Notes under the pieces: model-generated | Seen by the model: only the letters and a program-made list of their open reading frames with translations | What the model was told of the DNA's origin: nothing | Database searches by the model: none | Shown here: positions 29,132 through 38,336 of the stretch, one piece after another | Layout of the letters: every line of letters starts with the position of its first letter | Numbering within the stretch: position 1 is the stretch's first letter | DNA from: a virus | Virus record (IMG/VR): IMGVR_UViG_3300031566_000118 | Coordinates: 1-42,266 of that record | Length of the DNA stretch: 42,266 nucleotides | Reading direction: 5' to 3' (one strand) | Made by a program: the position numbers and the translations under genes

Positions 29132-29527
29132 ATGAGCAAATACAGTAAAAACACCGGTGCAGTTTTCAGCCTTAAATATCACATCGTTTGGTGTCCGAAA
29201 TATCGACGGAAAGTTCTTGAAAATGAAGTTGCCAAACGCCTTGAAATGTTGTTGCACCAAAAAGCCGATGAAATAAATATGGTTATTCATGGGCTTGAAA
29301 TAATGCCCGATCATGTACATCTGTTTGTTGAATCCGATCCAACGTGGGCAGTTGCCGGCCTCGCACACGCTTTTAAGGGCTATACGAGCCGTATTCTTAG
29401 AAAAGAATTTGCTTTTCTTCGTTCCAGACTGCCTACTCTTTGGAGTAAAAGCTATTATGCAGGGACAGTCGGGCATGTGTCTGAAGAAACGATTAAAAAA
29501 TATATCGAATCTCAAAAAGGAAAATGA
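29132..29527 (+). CDS. tnpA: IS200/IS605 TnpA, Y1 HUH transposase
   Basis: 131 residues, normal length. The HUH metal motif is DHVHLFV (~59-65), and the catalytic tyrosine is in IKKYIESQ (~Y124) near the C-terminus. YHIVWCPKYRRKVL is the conserved N-terminal signature. The enzyme cuts and rejoins single-stranded IS ends bearing the hairpins. It looks intact. It is followed without a gap by tnpB. Confidence 0.92.
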   Translation: MSKYSKNTGAVFSLKYHIVWCPKYRRKVLENEVAKRLEMLLHQKADEINMVIHGLEIMPDHVHLFVESDPTWAVAGLAHAFKGYTSRILRKEFAFLRSRLPTLWSKSYYAGTVGHVSEETIKKYIESQKGK

Positions 29528-30637
29528 ATGCGGAAAGCTTTCAAATATAGGCTTTTTACAAATAAGACTCAAGAAACCAAACTGGAAAAGCTTTTCGATT
29601 CCGCCCGGTTTCTTTACAACTGCGCCCTTGAACATCGTATGGTTTACTGGAAGCAATGGCGCAAATCGGTCAATTATTACGACCAGGCAAATACGATTAA
29701 AGAAATAAGAAGCTTCGATGAAGGCATTGCACAACTTAATTATTCCGCTTCTCAGGATATTCTCAGGCGACTGGATAAATCGTTCCAGGCTTTCTTTAGG
29801 CGATTGAAATTGGGTGACAAACCCGGCTTCCCCCGATTTAAAGGCCGAGACCGCTTTGATTCGATCACCTTCCCGTCCTATGGTGATGGAATCCGCCTCA
29901 AGAACGGCAAGCTCTACATTCAAAATGTCGGCAGTGTCAGAATCAGGGTGCATCGGGATCTTGAAGGAAAGATCAAAACTCTTGCTATCAAGTGGCAGAA
30001 CGGGCACTTTTACGCTTGCTTTTCCTGTGATAATGTAATTCCAAAGATTCTTGATCCCTGCACTGATGAAGTCGGCATCGATGTCGGTATCAAATCTTTT
30101 GCCGTGATGTCCAATGGTGAAGTCATAGATAACCCCAAATACCTGAAACAGTCCGAAGACAAGCTTAAGGATCTTCAGCGCAAACACTCTGAAAAGCGTA
30201 CTCGCAAAACCAGAAAGAAGCTTTCCCGCCTGCACGCTAAAGTCGGCAACCAGCGCAAAGACTTTTTGCATAAGCTCAGCCGGAACATAGTCAACCGGTT
30301 CGGCTTTATCTTTGTCGAAGCCCTGAAGCCGAAACAAATGGTTAACGGCAATCACAGAATTTTGAACAAGTATATCAACGACGCGGCATGGGCGATGTTC
30401 TTTGGCTGTTTGCAATACAAGGCAGAATGGGCCGGTAGAGCATTTGTCAAAGTCAACCCAAAAGGAACAACACAATCCTGCTCCAACTGTGGTGTGATTG
30501 TTCCAAAGGATTTGAGTATTAGAGTCCACGATTGTCCTTGTGGCTTTAAAACTTCCAGGGATCATAATGCCGCCTTAAATATTCTCAGGCTGGGACACAG
30601 CCTTTGCTTTACGCAAGAAGCCGTCTGCTTCAGCTGA
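29528..30637 (+). CDS. tnpB: TnpB, RNA-guided RuvC nuclease of IS605
   Basis: 369 residues. The RuvC residues are present: D in GIDVGIKS (~184), E in FVEALKPKQM (~263) and the final D in SRDHNAALNIL (~344). A zinc ribbon with CSNCG and CPCG lies at ~318-337. TnpB cleaves DNA guided by an RNA made from the element's 3' end; here the stop (30635-30637) falls within the right-end hairpin, so the guide-RNA scaffold should overlap the last codons. Intact. Confidence 0.92.
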   Translation: MRKAFKYRLFTNKTQETKLEKLFDSARFLYNCALEHRMVYWKQWRKSVNYYDQANTIKEIRSFDEGIAQLNYSASQDILRRLDKSFQAFFRRLKLGDKPGFPRFKGRDRFDSITFPSYGDGIRLKNGKLYIQNVGSVRIRVHRDLEGKIKTLAIKWQNGHFYACFSCDNVIPKILDPCTDEVGIDVGIKSFAVMSNGEVIDNPKYLKQSEDKLKDLQRKHSEKRTRKTRKKLSRLHAKVGNQRKDFLHKLSRNIVNRFGFIFVEALKPKQMVNGNHRILNKYINDAAWAMFFGCLQYKAEWAGRAFVKVNPKGTTQSCSNCGVIVPKDLSIRVHDCPCGFKTSRDHNAALNILRLGHSLCFTQEAVCFS

Positions 30638-37438: not shown

Positions 37439-37506
37439 TTAGGGGGGAAAGCTCCATTTGTTCTTGGGATTTAAGGAGCGGCCCCACACCTTGTTGACCC
37501 CCCTAA
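37439..37506. repeat. nested inverted repeat in a gene-poor stretch
   Basis: TTAGGGGGG (37439-37447) pairs with CCCCCCTAA (37498-37506), and inside it GCTCC (37451-37455) with GGAGC (37485-37489). The segment 37350-37508 has no protein gene. The structure could be a processing hairpin, an attenuator or an untranslated RNA; it works in either strand. Confidence 0.5.
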
Positions 37507-37508
37507 TT

Positions 37509-37724
37509 TTAGACTTGCCCTTGAACCTTGTCTTTTATTCGTAGCATGTTACTGTGTATCAAGGCCGTTCCTATAGCTACCTTGACAGTGACCAACATCG
37601 GGTGTTGCCCAAGCACCTGTTTCCAGGTCGCACACACGGTTTTTCTTTCCTTTAACAAGGGCAAGATAACCTCTACTGGCAACCAGGGATTCCCGATTCT
37701 CCACCCTGTAATTCGTACCTCCAA
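37509..37724 (-). CDS. 71-residue protein, TTG (or ATT) start
   Basis: The frame TGWRIGNPWLPVEVILPLLK, then TVCATWKQVLGQHPML and ALIHSNMLRIKDKVQGQV has the feel of a real small phage protein (Trp-containing N-terminal strand, helix, 'HSNMLRI' end). TTG 37724 is the earliest start after a TAG; alternatively ATT 37712, which has GGAGGT five bases upstream. A competing frame of 51 codons in the same stretch is less convincing. Confidence 0.5.
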   Translation of the reverse strand: MEVRITGWRIGNPWLPVEVILPLLKERKTVCATWKQVLGQHPMLVTVKVAIGTALIHSNMLRIKDKVQGQV

Positions 37725-37788
37725 AAAGGACGCGTGCTAAATACGAACTAGCAATTTATTAATCGTTCTACGCACTGCCAGCGATTTT

Positions 37789-37980
37789 GTGCCGGTAGCC
37801 AGGATTTGAACCTGGACGTGGTTGTTGGGTCATCTCTTCTTAGTTTCCCAAGCCCCTGTCAACAAGATGCTATATTTGACACGAGATATAGTATAGCTTG
37901 CTCGTAGTTTAATGTGAATTACAACTGTCCACTTCTATTCACTTTGAATGCGTCTACCAAATCTTTCCGCCACTACCGGC
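37789..37980 (-). ncRNA. tRNA-like/tmRNA-like structured RNA with an inserted pseudoknot domain
   Basis: 5' end GCCGGTAG (37980-37973) pairs exactly with CTACCGGC (37798-37791), an 8-bp acceptor-like stem; GGCGG then TTGGTAGACGC (37960-37950) is D-arm-like, as in tRNA-Leu; CCAGG-TTCAAAT-CCTGG (37815-37799) is a T-arm directly beside the acceptor. The trinucleotide after the C-discriminator is ACA, not CCA. Between D- and T-arm lie ~130 nt: a closing helix GTTGT (37925-37921)/ACAAC (37825-37821), extended by GTGG/CCAC, and an H-type pseudoknot: ACGAG (+ strand CTCGT 37901-37905) with CTCGT (+ ACGAG 37881-37885), and GCTATA (+ TATAGC 37892-37897) with TATAGC (+ GCTATA 37869-37874). The length, 192 nt, and absent variable arm rule out a plain tRNA. 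No convincing tag reading frame was found, so a tmRNA is possible but unproven. Confidence 0.65.
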
Positions 37981-37983
37981 TTG

Positions 37984-38076
37984 TCAAAGAACATTGCGGG
38001 GAGTGTCTCAACTTCCTCCCTCTTTATCAGGGCTGTCAGCCGTTACTCACTCAGCTCCCCGCATATCAAAGAACAT
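37984..38076. repeat. structured element: 8-bp inverted repeat within an 11-bp direct repeat
   Basis: TCAAAGAACAT at 37984-37994 recurs at 38066-38076. Immediately inside each copy lie the two halves of a perfect inverted repeat, GCGGGGAG (37996-38003) and CTCCCCGC (38055-38062). The sequence between has no protein gene. It lies just upstream of the tRNA-like RNA, in transcription order, so both may be parts of one RNA module, or this may be a small insertion. Confidence 0.65.
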
Positions 38077-38147
38077 TTTTACTAAGTGCCCGTCTGCTGC
38101 CCTCTGACGGCCTCTTGAGGTCCGTACTAGCGAGGGTCTTGTGCTTC

Positions 38148-38336
38148 TTAGGCTGTACCGCTCTGAGTGACGTTGCGCTCAGAACAGTTGGAATCCATCT
38201 TCTCCACCAGTTCCTTGTAAAACCTAGCCAAAGAATCCCAGCAAGGTGGTAGTGTTCTCATAAATTCAACGAGCCATTTCAATTGCTCGGCTTCTTCTTG
38301 GGTCTCAATGAATATGTAGGATGATCGAAATGTCAT
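38148..38336 (-). CDS. 62-residue protein
   Basis: ATG 38336 follows AAGGAGCCAGCC. MTFRSSYIFIETQEEAEQL, then KWLVEFMRTLPPCWDSLARF: a beta strand and two helices. It shares its translation-start block with the lipoprotein gene at 39087. Function unknown. Confidence 0.55.
   Translation of the reverse strand: MTFRSSYIFIETQEEAEQLKWLVEFMRTLPPCWDSLARFYKELVEKMDSNCSERNVTQSGTA

What the first reader, a model, noticed from the sequence alone, without database searches (positions are those of the whole stretch)
37789..37980. A tRNA-like RNA of 192 nt with an internal pseudoknot domain, read on the - strand
Eight-bp acceptor-like ends, a Leu-type D-arm block and a perfect T-arm lie at the two ends, while ~130 nt with a closing helix and an H-type pseudoknot replace the anticodon and variable arms. 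The ends and pseudoknot pair by direct reading. This is not a normal tRNA (too long, no variable arm, ACA in place of CCA, C at the discriminator). It resembles tmRNA in general plan (tRNA-like ends around a pseudoknot), but no tag frame with an ALA-type end was seen. It may be a new tRNA-like RNA, a phage tmRNA variant, or a tRNA-Leu interrupted by a structured insert.
Basis: partly seen in the sequence, partly recalled or inferred. Interest (0 to 1): 0.85.

Follow-up and report, generated by a model that had tools for sequence, protein, structure and literature searches.

The report
Anticodon-less leucine-tRNA mimic in phages
This phage carries an RNA that looks like the top half of a leucine transfer RNA, with its decoding arm replaced by a long insert, and it belongs to a large, apparently undescribed family of such RNAs in environmental phages that may still be charged with leucine although they cannot read codons.

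Summary
On the - strand, 37790-37980 has an 8-bp acceptor stem, a Leu-type D arm and a perfect T arm around a 134-nt insert. ARAGORN and Rfam find nothing there. It is not an isolated oddity. IMG/VR scans give over 110 distinct relatives, often several per phage and often in tRNA arrays. They share 47 different but always paired acceptor stems, and their inserts of about 45-150 nt are nearly all different. At the tRNA register 137 of 299 D-arm/T-arm pairs have perfect acceptors, against 1 in 16 shifted controls together. A covariance model built without the window finds it at E=8e-14, above every ordinary tRNA-Leu tested. No anticodon stem exceeds chance, yet the LeuRS identity elements are kept, and LeuRS is known to charge tRNA-Leu lacking anticodon and variable arms. 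Best reading: an anticodon-less, probably leucylatable tRNA-Leu scaffold carrying a structured cargo. Family structure is shown by covariation; charging and cargo function are inferred. The window's own pseudoknot pairs, but no better than shuffles (p=0.33), and no diverged relative of its insert was found.

The parts
37788..37980 (-). whole tRNA(Leu)-like RNA (5' end at 37980; encoded 3' end ...CTACCGGC-A-CA)
   Evidence: covariance model R1, built without the window: 59.9 bits, E 8.3e-14
37973..37980 (-). acceptor stem, 5' strand GCCGGTAG (8 bp)
   Evidence: sequence; 8-bp subtype also in L227, L098, L115
37950..37972 (-). U8-G9 and Leu-type D arm TGGCGGAAAGATTTGGTAGACGC: A14 37966, A15 37965, G18G19 37958-37957, A20a 37955; D loop 4 nt longer than the family norm
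37816..37949 (-). 134-nt insert replacing anticodon and variable arms; last base 37816 is U48
   Evidence: no anticodon stem
37869..37906 (-). possible H-type pseudoknot: TACGAG 37906-37901 / CTCGTG 37885-37880 and GCTATA 37897-37892 / TATAGC 37874-37869
   Evidence: pairs by reading; not better than shuffles, p 0.33
37818..37932 (-). possible closing helix GTGG 37932-37929 / CCAC 37821-37818 with GTTG 37925-37922 / CAAC 37827-37824
   Evidence: pairs by reading; not better than shuffles, p 0.53
37799..37815 (-). T arm CCAGG-TTCAAAT-CCTGG
37791..37798 (-). acceptor stem, 3' strand CTACCGGC
37790..37790 (-). discriminator A73 in the 8-bp reading; followed by CA, no encoded CCA
37982..37995 (-). 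AATGTTCTTTGACA, boxA-like motif just upstream of the RNA
   Evidence: direct repeat D1; boxA resemblance from memory; not enriched across the family
38064..38077 (-). AATGTTCTTTGATA, second copy of the boxA-like motif
37996..38062 (-). neighbouring 67-nt element with 8-bp closing stem GCGGGGAG/CTCCCCGC, no T arm; likely another RNA of the same array
   Evidence: sequence and fold

Best explanation
It is a phage-encoded tRNA(Leu)-like RNA that keeps the acceptor/T-arm helix and the D-loop/T-loop elbow but has lost the anticodon and variable arms; a 134-nt insert takes their place. Most likely host RNase P, RNase Z and the CCA enzyme process it as a tRNA. LeuRS, which does not need the anticodon, can then charge it, and the insert acts as a specific structured cargo on a stable, leucylatable tRNA scaffold. 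Shown: tRNA-like architecture, membership of a large phage family, absence of an anticodon arm, conservation of LeuRS identity elements, covarying structure in several family inserts. Inferred: expression, processing, charging, and a cargo role against or inside the host.
For: Register test: 137 perfect acceptors of 299 pairs against 1 in 16 shifted controls. Model without the window finds it at E 8.3e-14; ordinary tRNA-Leu reach at most 46.2 bits against 59.9. 47 distinct paired acceptor stems. U8 111/111, A14 111, A15 110, U48 107, A73 93 (97 with the 8-bp form) of 111; none of these is fixed by the search patterns. Anticodon stem at chance level. E. coli LeuRS needs A73, A15-U48, G18G19, A20a and D/T-loop contacts, and charges tRNA-Leu lacking anticodon and variable arms (PMC9976931). 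Inserts differ between RNAs, yet one insert core is nearly invariant in 16 loci with different arms and related inserts covary.
Against: No expression, processing or charging data. A Leu type could be inherited without charging being used; about 13% lack A at the discriminator. The long variable arm is missing, and LeuRS of some organisms may need it. The window's own insert shows no unusual folding and has no diverged relative. The 8-bp acceptor lengthens the helix by one pair, which might weaken charging of this copy.
Confidence: 0.55

Rival explanations
1. Pure scaffold: the tRNA-like ends only give end maturation and nuclease resistance to a small effector RNA; charging plays no role and the Leu type is inherited from one ancestral tRNA.
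For: Inserts are diverse and conserved in type; tRNA ends suffice for RNase P, RNase Z and CCA addition (general knowledge).
Against: A73, A15 and U48 are kept across 47 acceptor stems; A73 is not needed for mere stability. About 40 of 53 unselected over-long units are Leu type.
Confidence: 0.25
2. Decoy: the RNA titrates LeuRS, EF-Tu or a host defence nuclease that attacks tRNAs, and the insert protects it because no anticodon loop is left to cut.
For: Phage tRNAs are proposed to evade anticodon nucleases (PMC10264068); many of these phages carry tRNA arrays.
Against: A decoy does not need many different conserved inserts; removal of the anticodon arm also removes the site most such nucleases recognise.
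Confidence: 0.1
3. Leucine tmRNA: a trans-translation RNA that enters stalled ribosomes and adds leucine or a tag.
For: Same general plan: tRNA-like ends, no anticodon, inserts with crossing helices in some members.
Against: No tag frame in the window; inserts are as short as 40-60 nt; ordinary tmRNAs occur in two member contigs besides (L004, L116); no shared insert feature for a common ribosomal role.
Confidence: 0.05
4. A tRNA-Leu gene carrying an intron, or broken by an insertion.
For: The ends are tRNA-Leu; group I introns in tRNA-Leu are known (general knowledge).
Against: No anticodon stem above chance; ARAGORN with introns does not call the window; no Rfam intron hit; over 100 intact copies with paired stems.
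Confidence: 0.03
5. Chance or pseudogene: two tRNA pieces that happen to lie together.
For: The insert folds no better than shuffles.
Against: Register test 137 against 1; model hit E 8e-14.
Confidence: 0.02

Closest known systems
tRNA-Leu (class II tRNA)
   Same: Acceptor plus T arm, Leu D arm, U8-A14, A15-U48, A73; several members score above the Rfam tRNA cut-off with long inserts
   Different: No anticodon arm and no variable arm; 40-150 nt of other sequence instead
tmRNA (ssrA)
   Same: Anticodon-less tRNA-like ends around a long insert, with crossing helices in some members
   Different: Leu instead of Ala features, a real D stem, no tag frame in the window, far shorter inserts
Plant RNA virus tRNA-like structures
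   Same: Viral tRNA mimicry recognised by a synthetase (PMC5723415, title and abstract only)
   Different: Separate small RNAs of DNA phages, not the 3' end of an RNA genome
Phage T4 species 1 RNA (rnaC)
   Same: Stable phage RNA in a tRNA cluster with a T arm near its 3' end
   Different: No Leu D arm or matching acceptor seen; only a weak model hit, E 0.05
GOLLD, ROOL and theta ribozymes
   Same: Structured phage RNAs in or near tRNA islands (PMC12286853, PMC10879173)
   Different: No tRNA scaffold around them; one GOLLD RNA lies in family contig L175

Membership tests
Phage anticodon-less tRNA(Leu)-like RNAs (defined here) | Leu D arm and T arm joined by a paired acceptor at the tRNA register | tested here: met
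Phage anticodon-less tRNA(Leu)-like RNAs (defined here) | No anticodon stem at the tRNA position | tested here: met
   window 2 of 5 pairs; family at chance level
Phage anticodon-less tRNA(Leu)-like RNAs (defined here) | U8, A14, A15, U48 and A after the acceptor helix | tested here: met
Phage anticodon-less tRNA(Leu)-like RNAs (defined here) | Insert is a conserved structured domain | tested here: inconclusive
   shown for other members; not for this insert
tRNA-Leu | Anticodon arm with a Leu anticodon | tested here: not met
tRNA-Leu | Charging by LeuRS | not testable with these tools
   identity elements present; needs an assay
tmRNA | G3:U70 alanine identity | tested here: not met
   window third pair is C-G; G:U at the third pair in 1 of 111 members
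tmRNA | Tag reading frame | tested here: not met
   three-frame translation; ARAGORN none
Group I intron in tRNA-Leu | Group I core and recoverable tRNA exons | tested here: not met
   no Rfam intron hit at E<10 in the local scan; no anticodon exons

The most novel reading that the evidence does not exclude
Environmental phages carry a modular class of leucyl-accepting adaptor RNAs that cannot decode: a constant tRNA-Leu acceptor/elbow scaffold with exchangeable, individually conserved structured cargoes, several per phage, acting as host-directed effector RNAs in their charged form.
Probability: 0.4. Interest if true: 0.95.

Novelty: categorically new. Interest (0 to 1): 0.86.

Why it matters
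tmRNA is the well-known natural anticodon-less tRNA mimic of bacteria, and it uses alanine. A large phage family built on tRNA-Leu would be a second, independent case, at a synthetase already shown to tolerate loss of the anticodon arm. It would explain part of the unknown RNA in phage tRNA arrays, give a simple charging assay as a test, and offer a natural scaffold with many different cargoes. Annotation tools miss these RNAs or call them poor tRNAs.

Tried and rejected
Searches for relatives of the window's own insert (exact and degenerate patterns, neighbour protein, long-D-loop pattern, blastn in phages) gave only the 99.99% identical contig, one unrelated-insert member, or no match. Pseudoknot as support for the window: rejected as evidence because shuffles do as well. 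boxA-like leader as a family feature: 9 of 101 upstream against 3 and 7 in controls, not clearly enriched. Antisense matches of inserts to their own contig: same as the reversed control. Named phages matching by blastn: the six checked carry ordinary tRNA genes with a Leu-type D arm. His identity from G-1:C73: dropped because members with C there always continue with A. Ordinary tRNA arrays as false positives: seen (L036) and removed with ARAGORN. Spread in bacterial genomes: 793 genomes of two phyla gave three with strong matches, two of them already known; strict filters may miss some. Paper searches found no description; subscription papers and most preprints are not held.

Full report
What is there. 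On the - strand the sequence reads GCCGGTAG-TG-GCGGAAAGATTTGGTAGACGC, then 134 nt, then CCAGG-TTCAAAT-CCTGG-CTACCGGC-A-CA. The window is a virus record with an integrase, RecT, exonuclease and tape-measure gene. ARAGORN finds no tRNA or tmRNA in it, and Rfam finds no RNA above gathering score. The free fold of the RNA contains the acceptor stem, the GCG/CGC D stem and four pairs of the T stem, but the total energy is not unusual (z -1.0).

Two points need correction. If the acceptor stem is read as 8 bp, the discriminator is A and not C. In the family all four members with C after seven pairs have G at position -1 and A next (window, L227, L098, L115), so this 8-bp form is a regular subtype. 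The encoded 3' end is ACA rather than CCA, as in most of the family (A73 93/111, C74 96/111). The pseudoknot can be drawn, but the best crossing pair of helices in dinucleotide shuffles is as strong in a third of cases. It is therefore possible, not shown.

The family. A pattern of Leu D loop, 122-152 bases and T arm in IMG/VR gave 118 loci. Some were ordinary tRNA arrays, but over twenty were single tRNA-like units with a perfect acceptor stem and an unrelated insert. Further scans at other lengths gave more, and insert gaps cluster between about 50 and 140 nt. Among 299 D-arm/T-arm pairs, 137 had a perfect acceptor at the tRNA register; all sixteen shifted registers together gave one. This is the unbiased test; later counts of acceptor pairs, including those, come from sequences already filtered for pairing. 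A scan that does not require a Leu D arm found 567 units with T arm and acceptor in 2.35 Mb, 199 of them over-long, against 5 in three controls; 145 of the over-long ones had the Leu D arm. The Leu bias goes beyond the search pattern: of 53 over-long units that no pattern selected, about 40 are Leu type (a loose classification).

Membership of the window. A covariance model from 44 other phage RNAs, without the window, finds it at 59.9 bits (E 8.3e-14). Ordinary tRNA-Leu genes of named phages reach at most 46.2 bits.

What is kept and what is lost. In 111 members U8, A14, A15 and U48 are present in 111, 111, 110 and 107, although none of these four is fixed by the search patterns. U48 is the last base of an otherwise hypervariable insert in which T makes up 25%. 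A73 is present in 93, or 97 counting the 8-bp form. An anticodon stem at the right place is no more frequent than in shuffles (7/111, chance 5.8%), while most ordinary tRNA-Leu in the same loci have 4-5 of 5 pairs. The kept set matches what E. coli LeuRS needs: A73, A15-U48, G18G19, A20a and D/T-loop contacts, but not the anticodon or variable arm; truncated tRNA-Leu without these arms is still charged (PMC9976931). The inference that these RNAs can be leucylated rests on this.

The inserts. By sequence similarity nearly all differ: 111 inserts give only ten small groups. One type, ATGGTTATAGCACNNNGGGT, is in 16 IMG/VR loci, always right after a D-stem end GACG and before a T arm. Its core is nearly invariant while acceptors and D loops differ, and some D loops carry extra sequence. 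Its 4-bp stem covaries and crosses an invariant TTATAG/CTATAA helix (9 double-change cells, 98.8% paired against at most 60% when slid). Eight groups of related inserts show 22 compensatory against 2 broken pairs; the structure there was predicted from the same sequences, so this leans towards agreement. Hence at least some inserts are functional structured RNAs, in part pseudoknotted.

Mechanism. The most likely reading is a tRNA-processed, leucylatable scaffold that carries an effector RNA. The cargo idea comes from constant ends with many different conserved inserts; the charging idea from the conserved identity set. A pure stability scaffold is the main rival. A decoy, a Leu tmRNA and an intron are less likely, for the reasons in the rival section.

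Context. AATGTTCTTTGA(C/T)A occurs 1-2 nt before this RNA and before a neighbouring 67-nt element with an 8-bp closing stem. It resembles the boxA antitermination signal (from memory). A similar TTGTTCTTTGACAT precedes the arrays in L220 and L259, but the motif is not enriched in general. The stretch 37500-38150 seems to be a small array of non-coding RNAs.

Distribution. Members occur singly or several per phage, often among ordinary tRNAs (L220 has 24), in viral contigs and in phage-like contigs of genome bins. Sampled bacterial genomes of two phyla are nearly free of them. One genome in the Chitinophagaceae phylum sample has a member next to a RecT-like gene 31% identical to the window's RecT. 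The named-phage records checked had only ordinary tRNAs, but that collection could not be scanned with the model.

Limits. No expression or charging data; no diverged relative of this insert; literature access partial. The novelty class refers to the RNA family, absent as a family of its own from Rfam 15 and from the papers that could be searched.

Noticed in passing
window 37996-38062 and 37514-37665: Two further non-coding elements closed by perfect helices (8 bp; 10 bp CTTGCCCTTG/CAAGGGCAAG) flank the RNA, suggesting a small array of structured RNAs.
   Followed up: partly
window 29132-30637: IS200/IS605-type element: a TnpA-like ORF directly followed by a TnpB-like transposase, also in the near-identical contig.
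   Followed up: no
L143, L167, L173, L163, L142, L123, L150; L267, L268, L274: Family members with an extra hairpin inserted in the D loop between A15 and G18, a second insertion site in the same scaffold.
   Followed up: no
L145, L166, L218, L266-L277: A nearly invariant insert core (ATGGTTATAGCAC...CACTATAATGGCAGCCC) shared by phages with different arms; likely a specific ligand- or protein-binding RNA.
   Followed up: partly
L220:5640-5770 and L220:6780-6940, - strand: Other structured non-coding stretches with long closing helices but no T arm inside a 24-tRNA phage array.
   Followed up: no
L009:7913-8098 and L134:2005-2130: Inserts that themselves contain a second D-arm/T-arm or T-arm-like unit, nested inside the tRNA-like ends.
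   Followed up: no
L256:1409-1547: Phage T4 species 1 RNA (rnaC) has a T arm near its 3' end and a weak full-length match to the family model, E 0.05.
   Followed up: partly
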